Positions 1 through 39,342 of a DNA stretch of 64,000 bases are shown piece by piece. The notes beneath the pieces were generated by a model. That model was not told where the DNA came from. It saw only the letters and a program-made list of their open reading frames with translations, and did no database searches. Every line of letters starts with the position of its first letter. The stretch's first letter is position 1. A program made the translations under genes and the position numbers. Origin of the DNA: Pseudorhodoferax aquiterrae (GTDB lineage: Bacteria > Pseudomonadota > Gammaproteobacteria > Burkholderiales > Burkholderiaceae_C); NCBI RefSeq assembly GCF_014652235.1, contig NZ_BMYK01000018.1, positions 1-64,000 of the forward strand, in the 5' to 3' direction.

Positions 1-34
1 TGACAAAGCGCAAGGTGCCCTTGCGCAGCCCATG

Positions 35-126
35 GCGCTGCGCTCCTCGGCAGGGGCACAGGGGAAATTCCGATCCGGGCCATCGCTGCGCTCGGCCTGG
101 GACTCGGGCCATCGCTTCGCTCGGCC
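35..126. repeat. Partial copy of a dispersed non-coding repeat
   Basis: No convincing gene lies in the first 151 bases. Positions 77-97 and 106-126 are two near-identical 21-bp units (GGGCCATCGCTGCGCTCGGCC and a variant with one change), 29 bp apart. The same unit, preceded by a similar stretch containing CTCGGC and GGGCACAGGGG, occurs at 39219-39281, so this is a degenerate copy of the right end of the larger element at 38781-39281. It lies just downstream of the GntR gene that closes the left operon. Function is unknown; similarity was judged by eye. Confidence 0.6.
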
Positions 127-151
127 ACGGGATGTAGTGGGGCCGCGCATC

Positions 152-841
152 TCAGTTCTTGAACAGGCCGGCGGCATGCGCCTTGGCATCTTCCAGATGG
201 AAGCGCAGCGCATGCTGCACGGCGTCCACATCGCGCTTGGCCAGCGCGTGGGCGATCGGCCTGTGGGTTTCGGCCAGCACCTTGAGGTCGCCGTAGCTGT
301 CTTCGCTGAGCGCGAGAAACATGCGCACCTCGGTCTGCATGTTGTCGAACAGGCGGTGCAGGTAGTGGTTGCCCGAGAGCGCGCTGATCGCGAAGTGGAA
401 ATCCAGGTCCAGCGCCACGCGCTCGGCCGAGGGCAGGCTTTCTGCGCGCGCGACCATGTCGTCCACGCGCGCATCGAGCTGGGCCAGTTCGGCATCGCTG
501 GCGTGCGCGCAGGCCAGGGCCGCGCCCAGCAGCTCGAGCTGGATGCGCACCTCGTACAGATCGTTGACCTGCTTGGCCGAGACCGTGCGCACCGCAAAAC
601 CATGGCGCGGGCGCGAGACCAGGAGGCCCAGGCTCTCCAGCCGGCGCGCGGCTTCGCGCACGGGCGCGCGGCTCACGCCCATCTGCCTGGCGAGTTCGGC
701 CTCGACGATGCGCTCGCCCGGTCCAATGCGGCCCGACAGGATGGCCTCCTGCAGCTGGGCCTCGACCACGCCGACCAGGTCGGGCACCTGGATCGAGGAG
801 AAGGCGGGCGGGGATGCGGCCTCGGGCCGGCTCGTTGTCAT
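152..841 (-). CDS. GntR-family regulator, FCD (FadR) subfamily
   Basis: A 229-residue DNA-binding repressor or activator. Residues ~15-85 form the GntR winged helix (LQEAILSGRIGPGERIVEAE, then the recognition region MGVSRAPVREAARRLESLGL). The C-terminal FCD helical domain (YEVRIQLELLGAA to the end) should bind a metal and a small organic acid. The ATG at 841 starts the conserved domain cleanly; the reading frame continues further upstream without homology. It is the last gene of the minus-strand operon, 29 bp after the EamA transporter. The likely regulatory target is therefore its own operon, and the palindrome at 12439-12460 is the best candidate operator. The effector cannot be told from sequence. 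Confidence 0.9.
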   Translation of the reverse strand: MTTSRPEAASPPAFSSIQVPDLVGVVEAQLQEAILSGRIGPGERIVEAELARQMGVSRAPVREAARRLESLGLLVSRPRHGFAVRTVSAKQVNDLYEVRIQLELLGAALACAHASDAELAQLDARVDDMVARAESLPSAERVALDLDFHFAISALSGNHYLHRLFDNMQTEVRMFLALSEDSYGDLKVLAETHRPIAHALAKRDVDAVQHALRFHLEDAKAHAAGLFKN

Positions 842-870
842 GTGTGCTCCCTTTGTCTCGTGTCCTGCAT

Positions 871-1761
871 TCAGCCCGGCCGGCGCGCCCGCGCGAGATA
901 CATCCCGGCCACCGCGATCAACGCCATGCCCACCAGGGCCAGCGCGTCCGGCGGCCGCTGGAACCACAGCGTGCTGATCAGCACGGCCAGCAGCAGCTGC
1001 ACGTAGTTGAGCGGCGCCAGCGTGGCCGCGCCGACGCGGCGGAAGGCGGCCAGCAACAGCAGCTGGGCGCAGCCGCTCACGGCGCCGCCGGCGACCAGCA
1101 GCGCCATCTCGGGCCAGGGGGGCAGCTGGACGTGCGGCATGAACAGCACGGGGATGTTGGTGACGACCAGGCAGGCCAGCGCCATGTGGGCGAACTGCAC
1201 CGGCGCGGGCACCAGGCCCGAGAGCTTGCGCGTGAGCACCTGGAAGATCGCGTAGCAGACGGCCGAGACCGCCATCAGCAGCGTGCCGACCAGCGGCAGG
1301 CTGCCGCCGGGCCGCACGATGCACAGCATGCCGACGAAGCCCAGCAGCACGGCCGTCCACTGCGCGCGGCCCACGCGCTCGCCGAGCAGCCAGGGCGAGA
1401 GCGCGACCATGATCAGCGGGGCCGTGAAGTAGATCGCCGTGGCCTCGGCCAGCGGCATGGTGACCAGCGCCGTCATGAAGCAGGTCGCCACGATGGCCAG
1501 CGACACGCTGCGCGCGCTGAGCAGCTTCTGGTGCGGCTGGCGCCACAGGCGCAGGTCGCCGTGGCGCAGCAGCAGCACCAGGGCCAGCGCGCCGATGGCG
1601 GTGTAGCGGCCCAGGTTCACGACGGCTGGCGCATAGTGCGCGACCATCTGCTTGGCGAAGGCGTCGTAGGCTGCGAACAGCACCAGCGCGCCCAGGAACA
1701 GCGCAATGCCGGTGGCCGCGCCGTCGCGCGGCACCGATGTCGAGGCCGGTACGGAACTCAT
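871..1761 (-). CDS. EamA/DMT-superfamily membrane transporter
   Basis: A 296-residue inner-membrane protein with about ten hydrophobic helices arranged as two EamA repeats (first ~15-145, second ~160-290; ALVGMALIAVAGMYLARARR closes the second). Members of this superfamily usually export amino acids, metabolites or drugs, or less often import organic acids. Its ATG overlaps the stop codon of the upstream hydrolase gene by 4 bp (TCAT on the plus strand at 1758-1761), showing translational coupling. As the operon already has an ABC importer, this protein may export an inhibitory or surplus intermediate; that is inference. Substrate unknown. Confidence 0.88.
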   Translation of the reverse strand: MSSVPASTSVPRDGAATGIALFLGALVLFAAYDAFAKQMVAHYAPAVVNLGRYTAIGALALVLLLRHGDLRLWRQPHQKLLSARSVSLAIVATCFMTALVTMPLAEATAIYFTAPLIMVALSPWLLGERVGRAQWTAVLLGFVGMLCIVRPGGSLPLVGTLLMAVSAVCYAIFQVLTRKLSGLVPAPVQFAHMALACLVVTNIPVLFMPHVQLPPWPEMALLVAGGAVSGCAQLLLLAAFRRVGAATLAPLNYVQLLLAVLISTLWFQRPPDALALVGMALIAVAGMYLARARRPG

Positions 1762-3002
1762 GCGGCCTGGGCGAGCATGGCCCCGAGCAAGACGTTGGCC
1801 CCAGCTTCGAGGTGCTTGGGATCGGCGTCCTCCACCTCGTTGTGGCTGATGCCGTCCTTGCAGGGCACGAAGATCATCGCGGTGGGGACGCAGCGCGCCA
1901 TGTAGACGGCGTCGTGGCCGGCGCCCGTCACGATGTCGCGCTGGCTCATGCCGCGTGCGATGGCCTCGCTGCGCACGCGCTCGACCAGCGTGCGGTCGAA
2001 GGGCGTGGGCGGGAATTCCTGCACGAAGGCGATGTCCACCTGCACGGGTGTGCCCGTGGTTTCGCCCGCAGCCAGCGCTGCGGCCGCGGCGCGAAAGCGC
2101 TGCTCCATCTGCTCCAGCAGGGCCGCGTCCTCGTGGCGCAGGTCCACCGTGAATTGCACACGGCCGGGGATCACGTTGCGCGAGGCCGGGTAGGCGTTGA
2201 CCACGCCCACGGTTCCGCGGCCCAATGGCGCGAACGCGGGATCGTTGGCGATGTCGACCACGGCCTGCATGAGGTGGGTGGCGGCGTACAGCGCGTCGCG
2301 GCGCAGCGCCATGGGCGTGGGGCCGGCGTGGGCCTCCATGCCGGTCACGGTCACGTCGTACCAGCGCAGGCCCAGCGAGCCCGTGACCACGCCGATGGTG
2401 GTTTCCTCGGCTTCCAGGATCGGGCCCTGCTCGATGTGGGCTTCGAGGTAGCTGCCGGCCTGCACGGTACCGATGGGGGCCGTGCCCGCATAGCCGATGG
2501 CGGCCAGTTCGTCGCGCACGGCCTTGCCGTCCACATCGGTGGCCGCGAGCGCCGTCTCCAGCGGGAACACCCCGCAGTGCACGCCCGATCCCATCATGAC
2601 GGGCACGAAGCGCGTGCCTTCCTCGTTGGTCCAGATGGTGAGCGCGAGCGGCGCCTCGGTCTGGATGCCTTGGTCGTTGAGCGTGCGCATGACTTCCAGG
2701 CCCGCCATCACGCCGAAGCAGCCGTCGAAGCGGCCGCCCGTGGGCTGGGTGTCGATGTGGCTGCCCGTCATGACGGGCTTGCGCGCCGGGTCGCGGCCCG
2801 GCCGCACGCCGAAGATGTTGCCGACCTGGTCGACCGTGATCTCAAGGCCGGCCTCGCGCATCCAGCCGACCACGAGGTCGCGGCCCTGGCCGTCCTCTTT
2901 GCTCAGGGCCAACCGGCAGTTGCCGCCCTTGGGCGTGGCGCCGATCTGGGCCAGGTCCATGAGGCTCTGCCAGAGCCGCTCGCCATCGATCGCCACCGTC
3001 AT
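1758..3002 (-). CDS. Zn-dependent M20 hydrolase, N-carbamoyl-(beta-)amino acid amidohydrolase type
   Basis: A 414-residue cytoplasmic enzyme of the hydantoinase/carbamoylase branch of M20 (AmaB, HyuC, beta-ureidopropionase, AllC). Metal-ligand motifs are intact: GSHIDTQPTGGRFDG (His82, Asp93), NEEGTRF (Glu127/Glu128), HIEQGP, GAGHDA and ISHNEVE. The family hydrolyses N-carbamoyl amino acids or allantoate to a free amine, CO2 and ammonia. Start at 3002 overlaps the upstream amidohydrolase stop by 4 bp, and its own stop overlaps the EamA start by 4 bp. With the aminotransferase in the same unit, a carbamoyl-amine to amine to aldehyde/oxo-acid sequence is plausible, but the substrate is not determined. 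It differs from the second M20 carbamoylase here (42144-43922), which is fused to UraD. Confidence 0.88.
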   Translation of the reverse strand: MTVAIDGERLWQSLMDLAQIGATPKGGNCRLALSKEDGQGRDLVVGWMREAGLEITVDQVGNIFGVRPGRDPARKPVMTGSHIDTQPTGGRFDGCFGVMAGLEVMRTLNDQGIQTEAPLALTIWTNEEGTRFVPVMMGSGVHCGVFPLETALAATDVDGKAVRDELAAIGYAGTAPIGTVQAGSYLEAHIEQGPILEAEETTIGVVTGSLGLRWYDVTVTGMEAHAGPTPMALRRDALYAATHLMQAVVDIANDPAFAPLGRGTVGVVNAYPASRNVIPGRVQFTVDLRHEDAALLEQMEQRFRAAAAALAAGETTGTPVQVDIAFVQEFPPTPFDRTLVERVRSEAIARGMSQRDIVTGAGHDAVYMARCVPTAMIFVPCKDGISHNEVEDADPKHLEAGANVLLGAMLAQAA

Positions 3003-4036
3003 GCGTTCAGCCCTTCCAGGAAGGCGTCCAGCGCCGCGCCGATGGCTTCCACCATGTAGCCGCCTTCCTGCACCACCACGGTGGGCAGGCCCAGTGCGCG
3101 CACGCGCGCCCCGGCCAGGCGGAAGGCTTTCATGTCGAACTTGAGCACGCTGATGGGGTCGTCCTTGTAGGTGTCGAAGCCCAGCGGCAGCACCAGGGCC
3201 TGGGGCTGGAAGCGCTCGATGGCGGCCATGGCCTGGTCCAGCGCCTGGGCGAACTCGGCGTTGCCGCTGCCATGGGCCAGCGGCAGGTTCAGGTTGCAGC
3301 CCTCGCCGGCGCCCGTGCCGCGCTCGTGCGCGTAGCCCGTGTACCAGGGGTAGTAGCCGGCCGGGTCGGCGTGGGTGGAGACGGTCAGCACGTCGCCACG
3401 TTCGTAGAAGATCTGCTGCGTGCCGTCGCCGTGGTGGGCGTCGATGTCGAGCACGGCCACGCGCGCATGCGTCTGGCGCAGCGTGGCAGCCGCGATCGCG
3501 CTGTTGTTCACGTAGCAGAAGCCGCCGGCGCGGGCGTGCTGGGCATGGTGGCCCGAGGGGCGGCACAGCGCGTAGGCCAGGCCACCGCTTTGGCGCACGG
3601 TCTCGGCCGCAGCCTGTGCGGCATGGGCCGCGCGCAGCACGGAGCGCCAGGTGTGCGGGCCGATGGGGCAGGACAGGTCGCCGATGTACCAGCCGGTCTG
3701 CGCGACCACGGAGGGCGAGGGGCAGGGGCCGATGCGCGGGCCATGCGGTGACAGGTTGGGCAGGACCTCGGGGCCGGGGCGCAGGCCGAAGGCGCCGGCC
3801 TGCTGCCAGCGCGCGTAGGCGGTCTCCAGGTAGTCCAGATAGTCCGTGCTGTGCACCAGCTCCAGCGCGGCGCGGCCGGCCTCGGGCGGTGCGGCGACCG
3901 TGATGCCGCGCTGGGCCAGCGTGCCCATCAGCGCCTCGGCGCGCGTGGGCAGGTCGGTGGGCTTGCAGATCACGCCCAGGCGCATGTACTGCTGCGGGTC
4001 GTGCAGCAGCTGGTCGTCGGAGAAGAAGGCCTGCAT
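2999..4036 (-). CDS. Histone-deacetylase-family amidohydrolase (acetylpolyamine amidohydrolase-like)
   Basis: A 345-residue class II HDAC-like zinc hydrolase. Catalytic and metal residues are all visible: RPSGHHA (His163/His164), VLDIDAHHGDGTQ (Asp199, His201), GFDTYKDDP (Asp288) and QEGGY near the C-terminus. Bacterial relatives deacetylate N-acetylpolyamines or other small N-acyl amines. The ATG at 4036 follows the aminotransferase stop after only 2 bp, and the stop overlaps the next start by 4 bp. Pairing with a SpuC-like aminotransferase suggests deacylation of an amine followed by transamination. The operon also carries a carbamoylase and an aldolase, so simple acetylputrescine breakdown does not explain the whole unit. 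Confidence 0.88.
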   Translation of the reverse strand: MQAFFSDDQLLHDPQQYMRLGVICKPTDLPTRAEALMGTLAQRGITVAAPPEAGRAALELVHSTDYLDYLETAYARWQQAGAFGLRPGPEVLPNLSPHGPRIGPCPSPSVVAQTGWYIGDLSCPIGPHTWRSVLRAAHAAQAAAETVRQSGGLAYALCRPSGHHAQHARAGGFCYVNNSAIAAATLRQTHARVAVLDIDAHHGDGTQQIFYERGDVLTVSTHADPAGYYPWYTGYAHERGTGAGEGCNLNLPLAHGSGNAEFAQALDQAMAAIERFQPQALVLPLGFDTYKDDPISVLKFDMKAFRLAGARVRALGLPTVVVQEGGYMVEAIGAALDAFLEGLNA

Positions 4037-4038
4037 GT

Positions 4039-5424
4039 TCAACCCTTCATTTCCGCGTCGAAGCGGTCCATGGCGCGGGTCAGGCGTGCGAACAGGTCGG
4101 CCAGTTCGGCCGCGGTGATGACGAGCGGCGGGCACAGGCCGATGCTGTCGCCCATGGCGCGCACGATCAGGCCTTCGTCCAGCGCCAGCGCGGCGAAGCG
4201 GTAGCCGGCCTTCTTGTCGGCCGCGAACGGCGTGCGCGCGGCCTTGTCGGCCATGAGCTCGATGGCGCCGATCAGGCCCACGCCGCGCACGTTGCCGACC
4301 CAGCGGCGCTCGGCGAAGGACTGGAGGCCCGCCTGGAAGGCCGGTGCCAGCGCCTGCACATGGTCGATGAGCTTCTCGTCCTCGTAGACCTGGAGCGTCT
4401 CCAGCGCCACGGCGCAGGCGACCGGGTGGCCCGAGTAGGTGTAGCCGTGGCCGAAGCTGCCCAGCTTGCCGCTGTGGGCCGCGATCGCGCTGTGCACCTT
4501 GTCGTTGACCATGACGGCCGAGATCGGCACGTAGCCCGAGGACAGGGCCTTGGCGCAGGACAGGATGTCGGGTTGGATGCCGAAGGTTGTCGAGCCGAAC
4601 ATGTTGCCCGTGCGGCCGAAGCCGCAGATCACCTCGTCGGCGATCATGAGCACCTCGTACTTGCGCAGCACGGCCTGCACCTTCTCGAAGTAGCCGGCCG
4701 GGGGCACCAGCACGCCGCCTGCACCCATCACCGGCTCGGCGATGAAGGCGGCCACGGTGTCGGGGCCTTCGGCCAGGATGCGTTCTTCGAGCTGCTTGGC
4801 CAGGCGCGTGGAGAAGTCCTGCTCGGTCTCGCCGGGCTCGGCGTAGCGGTAGTGGTGCGGGCAGTCCACGTGCAGGAAGCGTGCGGCCGGTGCGGTGGCG
4901 ATCGGCAGGTCGAAGTCGCGGTGGTTGCCGTCCAGGCCGCCCAGGCTGGCCGCGGCCACGGTCACGCCGTGGTAGGCATTGCGGCGCGCGATGATCTTCT
5001 TCTTGTGCGGCTTGCCGATGGCGTTGTGGTAGTACCAGACCATCTTGACCGCGCTGTCGTTGGCCTCGGAGCCCGAGTTGGCGAAGAACACGCGGGCCAT
5101 GGGCGCGGGGGCCAGCGCCAGCAGCTTCTCGGCCAGGTCGGCCACGGCCACGTTGGTGCGCTGGTTGAAGGTGTGGTAGTAGGGCAGGGTGTCCAGGGCC
5201 TTGGCGCCAGCGGCCGCCAGGCGCTTGTTGGAAAAGCCCAGCGAGGCGCACCACAGGCCGGACATGCCTTCGACATAGCGCTTGCCCTGGTCGTCGACGA
5301 CGTGGATGCCGTCGCCACCCACGATCACGAGCGGCGGCGTCTGCGGCAGCGCGGCCAGGTTGGTGTAGGAGTGCAGGTGGGTGGCGACGTCCTTCTCGCC
5401 GGTGCTCATCGGGTCTTTGGCCAT
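4039..5424 (-). CDS. Class III PLP-dependent aminotransferase (omega-aminotransferase, SpuC/beta-alanine-pyruvate type)
   Basis: A 461-residue fold-type I aminotransferase. Diagnostic stretches: GMSGLWCASLGF (residues ~54-64), the phosphate-cup FFANSGSEANDSAVKM (114-128), the Asp binding pyridine N in ADEVICGFGR (Asp263) and the PLP-binding Lys292 in CAKALSSGYVP. The pattern matches aminotransferases for putrescine, beta-alanine or other omega-amines with pyruvate as acceptor. I use the ATG at 5424 because AGGAG lies 5 bases upstream; another in-frame ATG at 5445 would overlap the preceding gene. The gene sits 17 bp after the dehydrogenase stop and 2 bp before the HDAC-like gene. Confidence 0.9.
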   Translation of the reverse strand: MAKDPMSTGEKDVATHLHSYTNLAALPQTPPLVIVGGDGIHVVDDQGKRYVEGMSGLWCASLGFSNKRLAAAGAKALDTLPYYHTFNQRTNVAVADLAEKLLALAPAPMARVFFANSGSEANDSAVKMVWYYHNAIGKPHKKKIIARRNAYHGVTVAAASLGGLDGNHRDFDLPIATAPAARFLHVDCPHHYRYAEPGETEQDFSTRLAKQLEERILAEGPDTVAAFIAEPVMGAGGVLVPPAGYFEKVQAVLRKYEVLMIADEVICGFGRTGNMFGSTTFGIQPDILSCAKALSSGYVPISAVMVNDKVHSAIAAHSGKLGSFGHGYTYSGHPVACAVALETLQVYEDEKLIDHVQALAPAFQAGLQSFAERRWVGNVRGVGLIGAIELMADKAARTPFAADKKAGYRFAALALDEGLIVRAMGDSIGLCPPLVITAAELADLFARLTRAMDRFDAEMKG

Positions 5425-5441
5425 GGGGGCTCCTCGTGGTT

Positions 5442-6346
5442 TCAAACGCTCAGGCGTTTCAGGTTGTCTTCGGTCTGCCGCGCGATGGCCTCGGGCCCAG
5501 TGCGCGTGGCAATGTGCGGCGTGACGGTGATGCGCGGGTGGTGCCAGAAGGGGTGGGCCTGCGGCAGCGGTTCCTCGACGAAGGCGTCCAGCACGGCCGA
5601 GGCGATCTGGCCGCTCTCCAGCGCGCCGAGCAGGTCGTCCTGCACGAGTTGCGCGCCGCGGCCGGCGTTGACCAGGTGGGCGCCGCGCGGCAGCTGGGCG
5701 AACAGTTCGGCGTTCAGGATACCGTGGGTGTCCGCCGTCAGCGGCAGCAGGCAGACCAGCGTGTCGCAGCCGGCGAGGAACTCGGCGCGCGATGCGTCAC
5801 CGTGGAACGCCTCCACACCCTCGGGCAAACCGCTCTTGGGACTGCGGCTCCAGCCGCGCACGCGGTAGCCGATGGCCGCCAGCGCCTTGGCGGCAGACTG
5901 GCCCAGCACGCCCAGGCCGGCGATGCCCACGCGGTGCCGGCCCGGTGGCACGACGGGCGATTCCTCCCAGGCCGCACGGCGCTGGCTTTCGATGTAGCCG
6001 CCCATGTGGCGCTGGCCGTGCACCACGGCCCAGGCCACGTAGGCGTTCATGCCGGCCGCCATCTCGGCATCGACGATGCGGCAGATCGGCACGTCGGGCA
6101 GCGCGGTGTCACGCGTGATGTGGTCGGTGCCGGCGCCCACCGACTGGATCAGCCGCAGCCTGGGCATGCGGGCCAGCAGGCCGACGGGGGGCGACCAGCA
6201 GACCACGGCATCGATCTGTTCGAGCGCCGCCAGTTCCTGCACCTCGGTGTCGATGCGGTGCAACTTGGCGTTGGGAAACCGCGCGCTGAAGGCAGGGCGC
6301 AGGTAGTCCATGGCGATCTGGTCGGAGACGAGCGCGATGTTCAATG

Positions 6347-6350
<4 letters not shown>
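5442..6350 (-). CDS. D-isomer-specific 2-hydroxyacid dehydrogenase (glyoxylate/hydroxypyruvate reductase A-like)
   Basis: A 302-residue NAD(P)H-dependent dehydrogenase. The Rossmann motif GIAGLGVLGQSAAKAL lies near residues 133-148, followed by RGWSRSPKSG. Basic residues after the second strand suggest NADPH preference. The catalytic triad is present: Arg in NAGRGAQLV, Glu in VEEPLP and His in VTPHIA. GhrA-type enzymes reduce glyoxylate, hydroxypyruvate or other 2-oxo acids. The start overlaps the ATPase stop by 4 bp (6347-6350). In this operon it could reduce a 2-oxo acid formed by the aldolase or aminotransferase; the direction in vivo cannot be seen. Confidence 0.88.
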
Positions 6351-7983
<1,633 letters not shown>

Positions 7984-7987
<4 letters not shown>

Positions 7988-8826
7988 TTCCCTCTCCCAT
8001 CGGCACGGGCGTTCAGGCCGTCGTTGAGGCCTTCACCGACTAGGTTCAGCGCCAGCACCGTGAGCAGGATGGCGACGCCCGGGAACACCGCCATCCACCA
8101 GGCCTGGCGCAGCACCGTGCGCGCCGAGCCGACCATGTAGCCCCAGCTCATCTGGTTCGGGTCGCCCAGGCCCAGGAAGCTCAAGCTGGATTCGAGCAGG
8201 ATGGCCGTGGCCACCATCAGCGAGGCCATGACCACGATGGGCGAGGCCGCGTTGGGCAGGATCTGCGTCAAGATGATGCGCGGCGTGGACTGGCCCGCGA
8301 GCTGGGCCGCGGCCACGAAGTCGCGCTGGCGCAGCGTGAGGAATTCGCTGCGCACCAGGCGCGCCACGGGTGGCCAGGACACCACCGCGATGGCCGCCAC
8401 GATGGAGCCGACCGATGGCTCGAAGATGGCCACCAGCACGATGGCCAGCGCGAAGCTCGGCACCGACTGGAACAGCTCGGTGAAGCGCATCAGCGTGGCG
8501 TCGACCCAGCCGCCGAAGTAGCCCGAGATGGCGCCGATGGACACGCCGATCAGCAGCGAGACCACGGTGGAGACCACGCCGATCAGCAGCGAGACGCGGG
8601 CGCCGGCGACGATGCCCGAGAAGATGTCGCGGCCCATGGTGTCGGTGCCCAGCGGCAGGCCTTGCTCGGCGCCGGGATGGGCGAAGGGCATGCCGACCAT
8701 GTCCCAGGGGTTGTTGTGGGCGATGAAGGGGCCCAGCACGGTGACCAGGGCCACCAGCATCAGCACGATGAGGCCGAAGACCGCGCCCTTGTTGCGGCAA
8801 AAGCGCCGCCAGAAACTGCTTTTCAT
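7984..8826 (-). CDS. Peptide-type ABC transporter permease, DppC-like
   Basis: A 280-residue inner-membrane permease. It has the DppC-type N-terminal segment (RNKGAVFGLIVLMLVALVTVLGPFI), the extracellular HPGAEQGLPLGTDTMGRD motif typical of OppC/DppC, and the cytoplasmic EAA-like loop ARLVRSEFLTLRQRDFVAAAQLAGQSTPRIILTQILPNA, shown here in parts as QRDFVAAAQLAGQ and QILPNAASPIVV. About six helices. It lies 9 bp downstream of the DppB-like gene and overlaps the ATPase gene by 4 bp. Confidence 0.93.
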
Positions 8827-8835
8827 GGTGTTACC

Positions 8836-9810
8836 TCAGCCCAGTTCGATTCTTGGGTCGACCAGCGTGTAGACGAAGTCGGTAATCAGGTTGAACAGCA
8901 CGGCCATGGCCGCGGTGAACAGGAAGCAACCCATCAAGAGGTTGTAGTCGCGCTGCAGCAGCGCGTCGAACATCAGGCGGCCGATGCCGGGCCAGGCGAA
9001 CACCGTTTCGGTCAGCACGGCGCCGCCGATCATGCCGCCGGCCTGGATGCCGGCCAGCGTGACCACGGGCAGCAGCGCGTTGCGCAGGATGTGCTTGCGC
9101 TGGATGCGGCCCGGGTGCACGCCCTTGGCCCGGGCGGTCTTGACGAAATCCATTTGCGCGACCTCGAGCATGGAGGCGCGCGTCATGCGGGCGTAGACGG
9201 CCATGTAGAACAGCGCCAGAGTGAGCGCGGGCAGCACCAGGTGCTTGCCGATGTCCAGCACCTTGGCCATGCCCGTGAGCTCGGCGCCCACGGTGAAGAA
9301 GCCGAAGGCCGGCAACAGGTCCATCTGCACCGAGAACAGCAGCACGGCCATCATCGCGAGCCAGTACAGCGGCGTGGCGTAGAACAGCAGCGCGACCACG
9401 GTGATCAGGCTGTCCTGCCACTTGCCCGCGTTGCGGCTGGCCAGCGCGCCCAGCACGATGCCGAACAGCAGCGACAGGCCGAAGGCCGTGCCCGTGAGCA
9501 GCAGCGTGGCGGGCAGCCGCTCCAGGATCAGGTCGGCCACGGGCTGCTGCTGGCGGTAGGAGTAGCCCAGGTCCAGCTTCAGCACATGGCCCAGGTAGTT
9601 GGCCAGCTGCGTGGGCAGCGGCTGGTCCAGGCCGAACTGTGCGCGCAGCTGGGCCACGAACTGCGGATCGGACGCACCGGCCTCGCCGGCCATGATGGAC
9701 ACCGGGTCGCCCGGCGCGGCGCGCACCAGCATGAAGTTGGCGGTGGCGATGACCAGCAGGGCCAACAGGCCTTGCAGGACACGCACGGACATGAACTGGA
9801 GTCGTTTCAT
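8836..9810 (-). CDS. Peptide-type ABC transporter permease, DppB-like
   Basis: A 324-residue inner-membrane permease of the DppB/OppB type. Features include the N-terminal helix with LLALLVIATANFMLVRAAPGDP, the long periplasmic insertion (FGLDQPLPTQLANYLG), the EAA-like loop MLEVAQMDFVKTARAKGVHPGRIQRKH (in parts: VKTARAKGV, ILRNALLPVVT) and the C-terminal end VYTLVDPRIELG. It pairs with the DppC-like protein. A 174-bp gap containing a dispersed repeat separates it from the upstream binding-protein gene, the largest gap in the operon. Confidence 0.93.
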   Translation of the reverse strand: MKRLQFMSVRVLQGLLALLVIATANFMLVRAAPGDPVSIMAGEAGASDPQFVAQLRAQFGLDQPLPTQLANYLGHVLKLDLGYSYRQQQPVADLILERLPATLLLTGTAFGLSLLFGIVLGALASRNAGKWQDSLITVVALLFYATPLYWLAMMAVLLFSVQMDLLPAFGFFTVGAELTGMAKVLDIGKHLVLPALTLALFYMAVYARMTRASMLEVAQMDFVKTARAKGVHPGRIQRKHILRNALLPVVTLAGIQAGGMIGGAVLTETVFAWPGIGRLMFDALLQRDYNLLMGCFLFTAAMAVLFNLITDFVYTLVDPRIELG

Positions 9811-9867
9811 CGCAGTGATCCAGGTGGCCGAGTCTCACCCGACGGGGTGGTACGGCACGGTTCGAAT

Positions 9868-9934
9868 GGCCGCGGAGCAGGCCGTGCCAGTGCAGCCGCG
9901 GAACTGGCTCTGCCAGGCCGCTGGGTGCGCCCCC
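9868..9934. repeat. Dispersed ~66-bp repeat, copy A, between binding-protein and permease genes
   Basis: The segment beginning GGCCGCGGAGCAGGCC and ending CCGCTGGGTGCGCCCC matches the reverse complement of 46523-46588 at roughly four bases in five. It is followed by a stem (CCCCCTTCGCG then CGGAAGGGGG) at about 9930-9953. The other copy ends in an analogous but different CCCCT/AGGGG hairpin. It lies in the 174-bp gap after the solute-binding-protein gene, where such hairpins often set the ratio of binding protein to permease; that role is inferred. Confidence 0.65.
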
Positions 9935-9984
9935 TTCGCGCAGCGGAAGGGGGTTGGCGGAGCGCGCAGCGCGGAGACTGGGGG

Positions 9985-11547
9985 TTACGAAAGTTTCACG
10001 CGACCGAGGCTGTCGTTGAGTCCGATGCCGGACGTCACGATGTTCTGGATCTTGTTGCGGTACAGCGTCGGGAAGTTGATCTCGTGCAGCCAGGCCACGG
10101 GCACTTCCTCGACGAGCAGCTTCTGCACTTCCAGGTAGATCGCCTTGCGCTTGGCCGGATCGCCCTCCTTGGCACCGGCGGCGAACAGTTCGTCGACCTT
10201 GGCATTGGTGTAGCCGGCCACGTTGTTGAAGGGCGAACCCTTGGCGATGTTGTCGCTGGTGTAGTTGCGGCCCACGCCCAGGGCCGGGTCGCCGTACTGG
10301 TAGACGTAGGTGAAGGCCAGGTCGAAGTCCCACTCGTTGCAGCGCTGGTTCCAGCCGGCCACGTCGGTGGCGACCATCTCGATCTTGACACCGGCCTGCG
10401 TGAGGTTCTGGCGCACGATCTCGGCCTGGCGCTGCCAGGATTCGCCGTAGGGCAGGGGCAGGAGGCGGATGGTCTCGCCCTTGTAGCCGGACTCGGCCAG
10501 CAGCTTCTTGGCCTTGGCCAGGTCGCGCGGGTACTTGGCGACGTCGTCGCTGGCGAAGGCGATGTGGCTGTTGAACGGGCCCGTGGCTGGCTTGGCGAAA
10601 CCGTACCAGGCGATCTTGGCCATGGCCTCGCGGTCGATGGCGGTCCAGATGGCCTGGCGGAACTTCACGTTGTCCATGGGCTTGGTGCGGTTGTTGATCC
10701 ACAGCCAGCTGTGCGGCGCGAAGAACTCCCAGCCCTTGGTGGTGACGGCCGCACCCGGCAGCTTGGACAGGCGCGCCACGTCGAAGTACTCCACCGTGCC
10801 GCCCGGCGCGATGTCGACCTTGCCCGATTCGAAGGCGGCGGCGCGCGCGGCCGCGTCGGGAATCACGTGGAAGTACACGCTCTCCACGGTCACGGCGCCC
10901 GCCTGGTGGTAGTTCTCGTTGGCCACCAGGTGGATGTAGGAGCCCTTGGCCCATTCCTTGAACTTGAGCGGTCCGGTGCCGATGGGCGTGGCGTTGGCCG
11001 GGTTGGTCAGGAAGTCCGTGCCCTCGTAGATGTGCTTGGGCACCATGGGCATGGTGCCGTTCTCGAAGATGCCCAGGAAGGGGCCGAACGGCTGCTTGAG
11101 CTTGAACTCCACCGTGAGCGGGTCGAGCGCCTTGATCGATTCCACATGGGCCAGGCTGGCGCGGAAACGCGCATGCGTCTTGCGCAGGAACACGTCGCAG
11201 GAGAACACCACGTCGTCGGCCGTGAAGGGCTTGCCGTCGTGCCACTTCACGTTGGGCTTGAGCTTGAAGACGTAGGTCTTGCTGTCCGGGCTCACGGTCC
11301 AGGAGGTCGCCAGCTGGGGCTGGGGTGCGAGCTTTTCGTCGTAGCGCAGCAGGCCTTCGTAGATGTTGCCCGCGATCAGCTGCGTGGGGCCGTTCTGCAC
11401 GATGCCCATCATGAGCCCCGGGGGCTCGGGTTGGACCAGCACGTTGACGACGCCTTTCTTGGCCTGGGCCAGGCTGTGCAATGGCACCCCGGCGATGGAC
11501 AGGCCGAGGGCTGCGGGGACGGCTTGGATCAGGTGGCGGCGTTTCAT
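9985..11547 (-). CDS. Extracellular solute-binding protein, family 5 (peptide/nickel type)
   Basis: A 520-residue periplasmic binding protein with an N-terminal signal (MKRRHLIQAVPAALGLSIAG, twin-arginine-like RR, cleavage probably after SLAQA near residue 29). Family 5 landmarks: NIYEGLLRYDEKLAPQPQLA, the SPDSKTYVFKLKPNVKWHDG strand-turn signature, FTADDVVFS and the GTGPLKFKEW hinge region. Family 5 proteins bind peptides, opines, sugars, nickel or other ligands, so the ligand is not defined; the operon suggests an N-acylated or carbamoylated amine. It is the second gene of the unit, 48 bp after the aldolase gene. Confidence 0.92.
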   Translation of the reverse strand: MKRRHLIQAVPAALGLSIAGVPLHSLAQAKKGVVNVLVQPEPPGLMMGIVQNGPTQLIAGNIYEGLLRYDEKLAPQPQLATSWTVSPDSKTYVFKLKPNVKWHDGKPFTADDVVFSCDVFLRKTHARFRASLAHVESIKALDPLTVEFKLKQPFGPFLGIFENGTMPMVPKHIYEGTDFLTNPANATPIGTGPLKFKEWAKGSYIHLVANENYHQAGAVTVESVYFHVIPDAAARAAAFESGKVDIAPGGTVEYFDVARLSKLPGAAVTTKGWEFFAPHSWLWINNRTKPMDNVKFRQAIWTAIDREAMAKIAWYGFAKPATGPFNSHIAFASDDVAKYPRDLAKAKKLLAESGYKGETIRLLPLPYGESWQRQAEIVRQNLTQAGVKIEMVATDVAGWNQRCNEWDFDLAFTYVYQYGDPALGVGRNYTSDNIAKGSPFNNVAGYTNAKVDELFAAGAKEGDPAKRKAIYLEVQKLLVEEVPVAWLHEINFPTLYRNKIQNIVTSGIGLNDSLGRVKLS

Positions 11548-11595
11548 CGGTGCGGACCTTTCTGGAGGATGGGGCAGGGCTGGGAAGGCAGGGGA

Positions 11596-12444
11596 TCAGG
11601 CGCGGTAGGCGGCGGTGGACGCCGGCTCCAGGCGTTGCAGCAGGGCACGCCACTCGCGGGCGTAGGGGTCGGTGGGTTGCGCGGCCAGGCGGTTGGTGTC
11701 GCCGCTCTCGTACTGGCGCGCCGTCAGCTCGCAGATCTCTTCGGGCACGGGGTGGATGGGCTGGCCCGTGCTCTGGATGGCGACCTGCACGCGGCAGGCG
11801 CGCTCCAGGTTGTGCATCAGGATGAAGGCCTCGGAGATGGTGCGGCCCAGCGTCACGAGTCCGTGGTTGCGCAGGATCAGCGCGCGCGAGGTCGGCCCCA
11901 GGTCGGCGACCAGGCGCTCGCGCTCCTCGTGGTTCAGCGCGATGCCTTCGAAGGCGTGGTAGGTGACCCGGTTGTGGAACTGCAGCGCCCACTGGTTGCA
12001 GGGCTGCAGGCCGCCGGCCAACGAGGAGACGGCGACGCCGGCCACGGTGTGGGTGTGCAGCACGCAGGCGGCGTCGTGCCGGGCCGCGTGCACGGCGCTG
12101 TGGATCGTGAAGCCGGCCGGGTTCACGTCCCATTCGCTGGGCTCGACGATGTTCCCTTCCAGATCGATCTTCACGAGCGAGGAGGCCGTGATGTCGCGGA
12201 ACAGCATGCCGAAGGGGTTGATCAGGAACTGGTCCTCGGTGCCGGGCACGCGCGCCGAGATGTGGGTGTAGATGCTGTCGTCCATGCCGTACAGGGCGAC
12301 GAGCCGGTAAGCGGCCGCCAGATCTTCGCGGACCTGGCGCTCGGCCGCCGACATGGCGGGGCGGCTGGCCTTGGGGGCGGCGGGCTGGGCCGGGGCGATG
12401 CGTTCTGCTGTTTCCACGGTGTGTCCTGAAGTGTTGTCTGTCAT
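11596..12444 (-). CDS. Class II aldolase/adducin-family protein
   Basis: A 282-residue zinc lyase-like protein. Metal-ligand motifs are present: HTHTVAGVAVSSLAGG (two His of HxH) and RNHGLVTLGRT (third His). The acidic residue in the NPFGMLFRDITASSLVKID region is also conserved. The family covers fuculose-phosphate aldolase, ribulose-5-phosphate epimerase and decarboxylase-like enzymes, so the reaction is not fixed. I place the start at 12444 (MTDNTSGHTVETAERIAPAQ). No strong ribosome-binding site is visible and a palindrome covers the start. It is the first gene of the eleven-gene operon, divergent from the RbgA-like GTPase. Confidence 0.85.
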   Translation of the reverse strand: MTDNTSGHTVETAERIAPAQPAAPKASRPAMSAAERQVREDLAAAYRLVALYGMDDSIYTHISARVPGTEDQFLINPFGMLFRDITASSLVKIDLEGNIVEPSEWDVNPAGFTIHSAVHAARHDAACVLHTHTVAGVAVSSLAGGLQPCNQWALQFHNRVTYHAFEGIALNHEERERLVADLGPTSRALILRNHGLVTLGRTISEAFILMHNLERACRVQVAIQSTGQPIHPVPEEICELTARQYESGDTNRLAAQPTDPYAREWRALLQRLEPASTAAYRA

Positions 12445-12460
12445 CTGTCGACAGCTGACA
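12439..12460. promoter_or_regulatory. 22-bp near-perfect palindrome overlapping the aldolase start, candidate GntR operator
   Basis: The left half reads TGTCATCTGTC and the right half GACAGCTGACA; they are inverted copies except at one symmetric pair, giving a core CTGTCGACAG. It covers the start codon (12442-12444) of the first operon gene. FCD-type GntR proteins bind short palindromes of this kind, and the operon ends with such a regulator. Assignment to that regulator is inference. Confidence 0.55.
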
Positions 12461-12641: not shown

Positions 12642-13583
12642 ATGTCCATCCAATGGTTTCCCGGTCACATGCACGCGACGCGCAAGGCCATCGCCGAGCG
12701 CCTGCCCGAGATCGACGTGGTGATCGAGCTGCTGGACGCGCGCCTGCCGGGCTCCAGTGCCAACCCGCTGATCGCCGAGCTGACCCAGGGCAAGCCCGCG
12801 CTCAAGCTGCTGACCAAGCAGGACCTGGCCGACCCGGAACAGACCGCACAGTGGCTGGCCCACTACCAGGCGCTGGTCGGCACCAACGCCATCGCGCTGG
12901 ATGCGGGCATGGCCGCGCCGATCCGTGCGCTGGCGCCGGCCTGCCGGGCGCTGGCGCCGAACCGCGGCGGCATGGCCAAGCCCATGCGCGTGCTGGTCTG
13001 CGGCATCCCCAACGTGGGCAAGTCCACGCTGATCAACAGCCTGCGCGGCCAGCGCAAGGCCAAGACCGGCGACGAGGCGGGCGTCACCAAGACCGAGCAG
13101 CGCATCGTGCTGGAGGACGATTTCTACCTCTACGACACGCCCGGCATGTTGTGGCCGCGCATCGCCGTGGCGCAGAGCGGCGACTTGCTGGCCGCCAGCG
13201 GCGCGGTCGGCCGCAACGCTTACGACGATGTCGAGGTGTCGCTGGCCCTGCTCACCCAGATGCTGGGCCGCTACCCGGAGCGGCTGCGCGAGCGCTACAA
13301 GCTTCAGGACATGGGGGGCCTGAACGACGAGGCCGTGCTGGCCGAGATCGGCCGCCGGCGCGCACCGCTGCTGCCGGGCGGGCGTCCCGACCTGCAGAAG
13401 GCGGCCGAGATCGCGATCCACGACTTTCGCAGCGGCGCCTGGGGCCGCGTGACGCTGGAGACGCTGGAGGAGTTCGCGGGCTGGCGGGCGCAGGCCGATC
13501 TGGCCGATGCGGCGCGGGCGGCCAGGCAGGCGGCGCGCAAGCAGAAGAAGCAGCCGCAGCGTGGCGGCGGCCCGGCGTCCTGA
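12642..13583 (+). CDS. Ribosome-biogenesis GTPase, YlqF/RbgA family
   Basis: A 313-residue circularly permuted GTPase. The permuted order G4-G5-G1-G2-G3 is visible: G4 as TKQD (residues 58-61), then G1/P-loop GIPNVGKS (121-128) and G3 DTPG (165-168). The N-terminal MSIQWFPGHMHATRKAI block is the family signature. RbgA assists late assembly of the 50S subunit in Gram-positives; homologues in proteobacteria are presumed to act on ribosomes too. Start chosen at the signature ATG (12642). It diverges from the catabolic operon and runs toward the Mrr-like gene, with stops 6 bp apart. Confidence 0.93.
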   Translation: MSIQWFPGHMHATRKAIAERLPEIDVVIELLDARLPGSSANPLIAELTQGKPALKLLTKQDLADPEQTAQWLAHYQALVGTNAIALDAGMAAPIRALAPACRALAPNRGGMAKPMRVLVCGIPNVGKSTLINSLRGQRKAKTGDEAGVTKTEQRIVLEDDFYLYDTPGMLWPRIAVAQSGDLLAASGAVGRNAYDDVEVSLALLTQMLGRYPERLRERYKLQDMGGLNDEAVLAEIGRRRAPLLPGGRPDLQKAAEIAIHDFRSGAWGRVTLETLEEFAGWRAQADLADAARAARQAARKQKKQPQRGGGPAS

Positions 13584-38736: not shown

Positions 38737-38780
38737 AGCGGGCCTACACTGAACCCATGGATGAGCGGAACGGAGACAGC

Positions 38781-39281
38781 GGCCAAGCGCAGCGATGGCC
38801 CGAGCCCCAGGCCGAGCGCAGCGATGGCCCGAATGGGACACCGGGGACGCCTTCTTTTGCCTACTTTTCTTGGCGAGACAAGAAAAGTCGGTCGGGGTGT
38901 GGGGGAGAAGCCCCCACCTCCTCACGTCGATCAGACGTCTTGGTCGATAGAACGCACCGTGTTCGCACCAGCACCAGAGGCCGGGATTGCCCCCGGCAGT
39001 GCAGTCACTTTCTCTTGTTTCGCCAAGAGAAAGTAACCAAAGAGAAGGCGACCCCGGTGCCCCCGTCCCTCCGCTGGCGCTCCGGGCAACCTGCGGTGCT
39101 CGCGGCCTGGGCGCATTGCACAACTCGCACCACTCACTGCGTTCGTTCAGCTCGAACAAGTGCAATGAGTCAGATGTTGAAGCGCGTGGTTCCCCGCGCC
39201 GCCCAGGCCCCTGCGCGCCTCGGCGTGGGCACAGGGGCCCCGGGGTACGGGGACACATTCGGGCCATCGCTGCGCTCGGCC
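38781..39281. repeat. Nested inverted-repeat, non-coding element (~500 bp)
   Basis: The 706-bp gap 38637-39342 is mostly this element. The outer arms, 38810-38835 and 39256-39281, are perfect 26-bp inverted copies; a second outer unit starts at 38781. The inner arms, 38841-38888 and 39007-39057, are near-complementary over about 48 bp and carry TACTTTTCTTGGCGA versus TCGCCAAGAGAAAGTA. A third pair, CATTGCAC at 39114-39121 and GTGCAATG at 39160-39167, lies between. No supported open frame is present. The end is repeated at positions 35-126. It resembles dispersed palindromic elements common in beta-proteobacterial genomes; mobility is not shown. Confidence 0.75.
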
Positions 39282-39342
39282 CTGGACCGTTCGGCCCTGG
39301 CCCGTTCGGCCACCATGGCGCTTTGCGGAAGGGAGCACTGAC

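What the first reader, a model, noticed from the sequence alone, without database searches (positions are those of the whole stretch)
152..12444. Eleven-gene catabolic operon of unknown substrate
One continuous minus-strand unit joins a class II aldolase, a complete peptide-type ABC importer with a fused double ATPase, a 2-hydroxyacid dehydrogenase, a SpuC-like aminotransferase, an HDAC-type amidohydrolase, an M20 carbamoylase, an EamA transporter and a GntR regulator. Four junctions are 4-bp overlaps and the rest are short apart from one 174-bp gap. The amidohydrolase, carbamoylase and aminotransferase suggest sequential removal of acyl and carbamoyl groups and then the amine; the aldolase and dehydrogenase suggest a carbon-carbon cleavage and reduction. 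No pathway I know contains this full set. The gene families are certain; the pathway is inference.
Basis: partly seen in the sequence, partly recalled or inferred. Interest (0 to 1): 0.7.

Follow-up and report, generated by a model that had tools for sequence, protein, structure and literature searches.

The report
GntR-controlled operon for acylated amines
This is part of a larger, regulator-controlled bacterial gene set that seems to import amide-capped amines and strip them for carbon and nitrogen; its core recurs across Proteobacteria, but what exactly it eats is still unknown.

Summary
The eleven genes are real and exactly placed, apart from the aldolase start (better GTG 12417 than ATG 12444). 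The unit is truncated: the window begins at a contig end inside a multicopy palindromic repeat, and the operon very probably continues on contig C46 with an SDR, a second HDAC-type deacylase, an APH-type kinase and a phospholyase-like PLP enzyme (about 15 genes). Synteny holds: in 34 of 34 Comamonadaceae-type loci of at least 20.8 kb, the ten reader genes other than the M20 'carbamoylase' occur together with the second deacylase; the M20 is in 1 of 34. A palindrome CTGTCGACAG lies upstream of the aldolase gene in 37 of 40 loci; the three without it also lack this GntR gene. The same core and site occur in distant Pseudomonadota. Best reading: a GntR regulon importing N-acylated terminal amines or amino alcohols, deacylating them with two acetylpolyamine-amidohydrolase-like enzymes, then removing the amine by transamination or by kinase plus phospholyase. 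The carbamoyl step is not core, and the 'aldolase' lacks FucA's catalytic glutamate. The substrate is unresolved. Nine literature searches found no characterised orthologous operon.

The parts
12445..12454 (.). Palindrome CTGTCGACAG, predicted operator of the operon's GntR regulator
   Evidence: Exact in 37 of 40 aldolase loci with at least 300 bp upstream; 38 sites in 1,581,421 bases of the 80 loci; site and gntR both present in 37, both absent in 3; extended form at one place in the 7.1 Mb genome; TGTCGACA upstream of the aldolase in 12 of 13 further chosen clusters
11596..12417 (-). Class II aldolase/adducin-family protein; start corrected from 12444 (inference)
   Evidence: PF00596 171.6 bits; NF005451 351 against a cut-off of 207; zinc histidines kept, catalytic Glu replaced by Gly
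9985..11547 (-). Family 5 substrate-binding protein of the importer
   Evidence: PF00496 294.1 bits
8836..9810 (-). Peptide-type ABC permease 1
   Evidence: NCBIfam Opp/Nik/Dpp B models
7984..8826 (-). Peptide-type ABC permease 2
   Evidence: PF00528 and PF12911
6347..7987 (-). Fused double ATPase
   Evidence: Two ABC_tran stretches, two oligo_HPY stretches
5442..6350 (-). GhrA-like 2-hydroxyacid dehydrogenase
   Evidence: PF02826 146.7 bits; GhrA model 190.6 below its cut-off of 403; Arg231/Glu260/His279 shared with E. coli GhrA
4039..5424 (-). Class III aminotransferase, PRK06105 subfamily
   Evidence: NF004767 698.6 against 517; best solved match 6g4b, 555.9 bits
2999..4036 (-). HDAC-type deacylase 1, acetylpolyamine-amidohydrolase-like
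   Evidence: PF00850 242.5 bits; best solved match 3men
1758..3002 (-). M20 carbamoylase-family hydrolase, an accessory gene
   Evidence: TIGR01879 416.1 against 204; in 1 of 34 full-length relatives
871..1761 (-). EamA-family transporter
   Evidence: PF00892 93.3 bits
152..841 (-). GntR/FCD regulator
   Evidence: PF00392 and PF07729; co-occurs with the palindrome
1..151 (-). End of a roughly 670-bp palindromic repeat at which the assembly breaks; the operon very probably continues on contig C46 (SDR 166-870, deacylase 2 877-1905, kinase 1908-2999, phospholyase-like enzyme 2992-4260)

Best explanation
A single GntR-controlled operon of about 15 genes takes up an N-acylated primary amine or amino alcohol through a peptide-type ABC importer. 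Two HDAC-type, acetylpolyamine-amidohydrolase-like zinc enzymes (plus an M20 enzyme in some strains) hydrolyse its amide bonds in the cytoplasm and expose a terminal amine. The amine is removed by two routes: a PRK06105 omega-transaminase, and an APH-type kinase that phosphorylates a neighbouring hydroxyl followed by a PLP ammoniophospholyase that releases phosphate and ammonia. The GhrA-like dehydrogenase, the adducin-family enzyme and, where present, the SDR process the remaining oxo or hydroxy acid skeleton; EamA perhaps exports an intermediate. GntR binds CTGTCGACAG in front of the first gene. Shown by sequence: gene content, linkage in relatives, co-occurrence of palindrome and regulator, kept catalytic residues. 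Inferred: junction of the two contigs, transport direction, order of steps, regulator binding and every reaction. The most fitting substrates are N-acetylated hydroxylated diamines or diamino acids such as 2-hydroxyputrescine or hydroxylysine; this last point is speculation.
For: Linkage: 34 of 34 full-length loci carry the ten non-M20 reader genes plus deacylase 2, and 30 of 34 carry kinase and lyase. Palindrome and gntR: both present in 37, both absent in 3 of 40 loci; TGTCGACA upstream of the aldolase gene in 12 of 13 further chosen clusters, the exception having LysR. Deacylases: best solved matches are acetylpolyamine amidohydrolases, with metal and tyrosine motifs kept. Lyase: 379 and 373 bits to a phospholyase and human ethanolamine-phosphate phospho-lyase, next best 166. 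Kinase motifs invariant in 9 of 9 rows; kinase beside lyase in 39 of 40 chosen neighbourhoods. Kinase, lyase and deacylase also stand together in Microvirga and Bosea. A plasmid-borne copy is almost colinear.
Against: No biochemical data. A deacylase lies near the kinase-lyase pair in only 7 of 40 chosen kinase neighbourhoods, five of them from one genus and four of those on the other strand at 32-37% identity, so the pair also serves other pathways. Four of 34 full-length loci (Comamonas) lack kinase and lyase. Deacylases of the GntR core clusters do not form one clade (4 changes). The role of the adducin-family enzyme is unexplained: FucA's catalytic Glu is Gly. The glutamate gatekeeper of Mycoplana ApaH is Val here, which argues against N8-acetylspermidine. 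No sigma-70-like promoter was found. Adjacency of C18 and C46 is not proven: both ends lie in a multicopy repeat.
Confidence: 0.6

Rival explanations
1. Ordinary acetylputrescine/acetylcadaverine catabolism: deacetylation followed by SpuC-like transamination, with kinase and phospholyase as a side module for another compound.
For: P. aeruginosa PA1409 and PA0321 deacetylate acetylputrescine and acetylcadaverine (passages of PMC4784309; section 9 of PMC11532494). The aminotransferase is an omega-transaminase by family and a member of its subfamily or a 49-50% homologue stands by the deacylase in several core clusters.
Against: No aldehyde dehydrogenase among the 15 genes; the hydroxyacid dehydrogenase, adducin-family enzyme and kinase/lyase have no role; the importer is of peptide type; two deacylases of separate clades.
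Confidence: 0.2
2. The amide joins an amine to a 2-hydroxy acid (pantothenate-like): the deacylase acts as a general amidohydrolase, the dehydrogenase and adducin-family enzyme degrade the acid half, and transaminase or kinase/lyase the amine half.
For: A cluster with only GntR, adducin-family enzyme, dehydrogenase and deacylase exists (L183). In Azospirillum, in a cluster without the adducin-family gene in the stretch seen, a 2-dehydropantoate-reductase-like protein follows the ATPase (219.3 bits, cut-off 223). HDAC-fold hydrolases of dimethoate and propanil are in the PDB list.
Against: Closest solved deacylase relatives are deacetylases; the kinase/lyase chemistry does not fit beta-alanine; FucA's catalytic Glu is missing.
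Confidence: 0.15
3. One reading: sequential removal of acyl and carbamoyl groups, then the amine, as in ureido or hydantoin degradation.
For: The M20 enzyme belongs to the hydantoinase/carbamoylase family, and M20 homologues recur with deacylase 1 in 19 of 33 loci outside the family (14 of them at 69-77% identity).
Against: M20 in 1 of 34 full-length family loci; no hydantoinase among the 15 genes; M20 enzymes of this family may take other N-acyl groups (recalled).
Confidence: 0.07
4. Recycling of hydroxamate siderophore fragments.
For: In Pseudosulfitobacter the cluster (without a dehydrogenase in the stretch seen) lies about 1.8 kb from an annotated lysine/ornithine hydroxylase, followed by a GNAT acetyltransferase and a MATE exporter.
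Against: Seen in 1 of 8 annotated plasmid loci; kinase/phospholyase needs a carbon-bound hydroxyl.
Confidence: 0.05

Closest known systems
Bacterial acetylpolyamine amidohydrolases (Mycoplana ramosa ApaH; P. aeruginosa PA1409, PA0321; B. pseudomallei 3men, species recalled)
   Same: Family, metal-binding and tyrosine motifs, best PDB matches
   Different: Gatekeeper Glu106 of MrApaH is Val in both; two divergent copies in one operon with a peptide-type importer and kinase/phospholyase
Hydroxylysine kinase and ammoniophospholyases (HYKK, PHYKPL, ETNPPL)
   Same: Adjacent APH-family kinase and class III PLP enzyme closest to 5g4i and human ETNPPL
   Different: Behind a deacylase in a GntR operon; substrate unknown. 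The kinase's resemblance to HYKK is recalled; the human work is known here only from a citing reference and recall
PRK06105 omega-aminotransferases (6g4b, recalled as the Pseudomonas jessenii 6-aminohexanoate enzyme)
   Same: Above the curated cut-off, best PDB match
   Different: Different gene context
Glutathione, dipeptide, nickel and opine importers (Gsi, Dpp, Opp, Nik, Cnt)
   Same: Family 5 binding protein, two permeases, fused double ATPase as in GsiA; the two-domain ATPase exceeds some curated cut-offs (NikD, NikE, CntD, CntF)
   Different: Binding protein and permeases stay below every curated cut-off listed, and the ATPase below that of GsiA (508 against 1077); linked to deacylases

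Membership tests
Acetylpolyamine amidohydrolase | Hist_deacetyl domain and best relatives among ApaH enzymes | tested here: met
Acetylpolyamine amidohydrolase | His-His pair, DxDxHH metal motif, second Asp, EGGY tyrosine | tested here: met
   Invariant in 11 of 11 rows; positions; functional roles recalled
Acetylpolyamine amidohydrolase | Glu gatekeeper as in MrApaH (not universal; PsApaH has His) | tested here: not met
   Val at the aligned place in both window-genome deacylases (gatekeeper from a passage of PMC11532494)
Acetylpolyamine amidohydrolase | Activity on acetylpolyamines | not testable with these tools
   Needs an assay
Ammoniophospholyase pathway (kinase plus PLP lyase) | Lyase nearer to known phospholyases than to transaminases | tested here: met
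   379 and 373 bits against 166
Ammoniophospholyase pathway (kinase plus PLP lyase) | Kinase partner with HxDxxxxN and DxGD motifs next to the lyase | tested here: met
   (motif roles recalled)
Ammoniophospholyase pathway (kinase plus PLP lyase) | Activity on a vicinal amino alcohol and its phosphate | not testable with these tools
   Needs an assay
Class II aldolase | Three zinc-ligand histidines | tested here: met
   H121, H123, H185 shared with E. coli FucA (roles recalled)
Class II aldolase | Catalytic Glu of FucA | tested here: not met
   Aligned with Gly in the window protein and the 3 relatives aligned (role of Glu recalled)
GhrA-type 2-hydroxyacid dehydrogenase | Arg, Glu, His catalytic residues | tested here: met
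   R231, E260, H279 (roles recalled)
GhrA-type 2-hydroxyacid dehydrogenase | NCBIfam GhrA equivalog cut-off | tested here: not met
   190.6 against 403
Carbamoylase/ureido degradation operon | M20 carbamoylase conserved in the cluster | tested here: not met
   1 of 34 full-length loci; 6 of all 45
GntR regulon | Conserved palindrome that co-occurs with the regulator | tested here: met
GntR regulon | Binding of the regulator to the site | not testable with these tools
   Needs a gel-shift or footprint

The most novel reading that the evidence does not exclude
A GntR regulon found across Pseudomonadota, not described in anything my searches found, scavenges N-acylated hydroxylated diamines or diamino acids: HDAC-type deacylation, then nucleotide-dependent phosphorylation and PLP phospho-elimination, with transamination as the alternative. 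This would give HDAC-fold enzymes a dedicated catabolic pathway, and bacterial HYKK/PHYKPL-like enzymes a pathway context.
Probability: 0.35. Interest if true: 0.65.

Novelty: new variant of a known kind. Interest (0 to 1): 0.5.

Why it matters
It would assign a pathway to a group of HDAC-like bacterial enzymes usually annotated by resemblance, and to kinase/phospholyase pairs whose bacterial substrates seem mostly unknown. The conserved palindrome makes the question testable: one binding assay and one induction screen with acylated amines could reveal the ligand for the whole family.

Tried and rejected
Class II aldolase as proof of carbon-carbon cleavage: rejected as unproven after alignment with E. 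coli FucA. Carbamoyl step as core: rejected. A special structure in the 174-bp sbp-permease gap: not supported (z -1.16). Consensus promoter and terminator scan: no promoter-like site, terminator-like sites at chance level. Nine literature searches found no orthologous characterised operon; only openly licensed PMC papers are held. Of papers I saw passages of PMC11532494, PMC8154272 and PMC4784309 and section 9 of PMC11532494; of all others only search listings with starts of abstracts. Substrate identity could not be settled: hydroxyputrescine and hydroxylysine are chemical guesses from the enzyme families, and the abundance of 2-hydroxyputrescine in Betaproteobacteria is recalled. No structure prediction or fold search was run. 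Gene lists come from a simple codon-usage gene finder of my own; the counts quoted rest on tblastn.
Full report
OBSERVATION. The eleven minus-strand genes are present at the stated coordinates with the stated families. Junctions are 48, 174, 9, -4, -4, 17, 2, -4, -4 and 29 bp. Upstream alignments of ten loci show that ATG 12444 directly abuts a conserved palindrome and is not an ATG in several relatives, whereas GTG 12417 is preceded by a plausible ribosome-binding site and aligns with GTG or TTG in near relatives; I therefore take 11596-12417 as the aldolase-family gene (inference).

THE UNIT IS LONGER THAN THE WINDOW. The window is the first 64 kb of contig C18, and its first 126 bp recur in the genome. 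In 299 genomes of the family, 13 (own included) hold a deacylase at least 63% identical to the window's; in 10 of these a second match of 44-47% identity lies 2.7-5.3 kb away on the same contig, and in 3 (own included) a second match lies on another contig. In the window's genome that is C46, whose start carries SDR, deacylase 2, APH-family kinase and a class III PLP enzyme (coordinates). In the 97% relative G253 (the same contig is named Pseudorhodoferax sp. Leaf265), the 711 bp between gntR and the SDR is a palindromic repeat; its left end matches C18:3-151 (83%) and its right end C46:2-156 (90%). Because the repeat has many copies, this match alone does not prove adjacency; conserved gene order is the stronger argument. 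The simplest reading is that C18 and C46 adjoin at an unassembled copy.

SYNTENY. A pattern-based scan of the 84,980-species genome collection returned 80 of 129 relatives of deacylase 1. In 34 Comamonadaceae-type loci of at least 20.8 kb (of 45 such loci, grouped by me from titles), aldolase-family gene, binding protein, both permeases, ATPase, dehydrogenase, transaminase, deacylase 1, EamA, GntR and deacylase 2 are in 34 of 34; kinase and lyase in 30 of 34; SDR in 10; M20 in 1. These loci were found through deacylase 1, so its own count is by construction. The C. kerstersii and C. aquatica loci, dropped by the length cut, carry M20 but lack transaminase, GntR, deacylase 2, kinase and a linked lyase. 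In 33 other loci of at least 18 kb (Achromobacter, Bordetella, Cupriavidus, Parapusillimonas, Microvirga, Bosea and others), deacylase 1 is accompanied by an M20 homologue in 19 (14 at 69-77% identity, 5 at 42-44%), EamA in 15, and kinase and lyase in 8.

TWO MODULES. Searching with the adducin-family protein in 397 phylum genomes and reading 16 chosen neighbourhoods showed gntR, aldolase-family gene, binding protein, two permeases, ATPase, dehydrogenase and a deacylase together in 7 of 16; one more (L183) has gntR, aldolase-family gene, dehydrogenase and deacylase without importer; 8 have no deacylase. A further copy (L157) adds kinase and lyase. The tree of 67 deacylases (quick method, SH-aLRT only) puts deacylase 1 with Achromobacter, Cupriavidus, Bordetella and Rhizobiales enzymes (29 rows, 99) and the Comamonadaceae deacylase 2 in its own clade (14 rows, 99), which groups with five of the eleven core-cluster enzymes at 86, not a strong value; the core-cluster enzymes as a whole are not one clade (4 changes), so the deacylase may have been exchanged there. 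The window's binding protein is 59-64% identical to core-cluster ones and 48-52% to those of the deacylase-1 clusters outside the family; one plasmid cluster without the aldolase-family gene (Haematobacter) nevertheless has 61.7%. The window's operon thus looks like a fusion of a GntR core module with a deacylase-1 module (inference).

PALINDROME. CTGTCGACAG lies upstream of the aldolase-family gene in 37 of 40 loci with at least 300 bp upstream; 38 sites exist in all 1,581,421 bases. Site and gntR are both present in 37 and both absent in 3. TGTCGACA is found 56-212 bp upstream of the aligned aldolase start in 12 of 13 further clusters chosen by me; those 12 carry a GntR gene, the exception has a LysR gene in its cluster. 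In the own genome the extended form occurs at one place. Regulation by this GntR is inferred; binding was not tested.

ENZYMES. Both deacylases are closest to solved acetylpolyamine amidohydrolases with motifs intact; the Glu106 gatekeeper of Mycoplana ApaH (passage of PMC11532494) is Val in both. The lyase is nearest to a solved phospholyase (5g4i) and human ethanolamine-phosphate phospho-lyase, and the kinase keeps its catalytic motifs. Kinase and lyase stand together in 39 of 40 chosen neighbourhoods, with a deacylase in the stretch in 7 of 40, five of these from one genus. The transaminase is a PRK06105 enzyme, and the same subfamily stands in the Nitratireductor and Pseudosulfitobacter clusters. 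The dehydrogenase keeps the GhrA triad. The aldolase-family protein keeps three zinc histidines but has Gly for FucA's Glu, so aldol cleavage is not established.

PLASMIDS. The binding protein has relatives in 55 plasmid records. Of 8 inspected, 7 have an amide hydrolase beside the importer (HDAC type in 6, an amidase in 1), 4 have the aldolase-family gene, and 3 have a kinase and a lyase-like gene (in the Thioclava record by annotation and order only). CP099606.1 from an Arabidopsis leaf isolate carries an almost colinear copy of the whole operon, without the SDR.

INTERPRETATION. The consistent theme is import, amide hydrolysis, and removal of a terminal amine by interchangeable means, usually under one regulator. 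The kinase and phospholyase imply a hydroxyl next to the amine in at least some substrates (inference from family chemistry). The substrate is not identified. No characterised orthologue was found in nine literature searches of a partial library.

Noticed in passing
window 38776-39297; window 1-151; L040:13698-14408: A roughly 670-bp imperfectly palindromic intergenic repeat with many copies in this genome (50 match rows, both orientations and pieces counted) and also in the near relative G253; several contigs begin or end in it.
   Followed up: partly
L195 (CP099606.1, 22-37 kb): Almost the whole operon, M20 included, lies on a 159-kb plasmid of a Comamonadaceae leaf isolate (typed non-mobilizable), so it can sit on a plasmid.
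   Followed up: partly
L192 (G000:C30:27500-47499): The same genome holds a second cluster with homologues of the aldolase-family gene (53%), dehydrogenase (43%), ATPase (56%) and permeases but no deacylase match.
   Followed up: no
L201 (Thioclava plasmid): An amidase-signature enzyme stands where the HDAC-type deacylase is elsewhere, beside an annotated phosphotransferase and class III aminotransferase: apparent non-orthologous replacement.
   Followed up: no
L202 (Pseudosulfitobacter plasmid): The GntR/aldolase/importer/deacylase cluster lies close to annotated hydroxamate-siderophore-type biosynthesis genes.
   Followed up: no
window 12642-13583, + strand: A YlqF-type ribosome biogenesis GTPase is divergent from the operon; its counterpart in L040 scores 291.3 bits to TIGR03596.
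   Followed up: no
L039:4970-8551 (C46): Downstream of the operon lie a fatty acid hydroxylase, a fatty acid desaturase and a DarB-like ketosynthase (below its cut-off) with a C-terminal haem-oxygenase-like domain.
   Followed up: no
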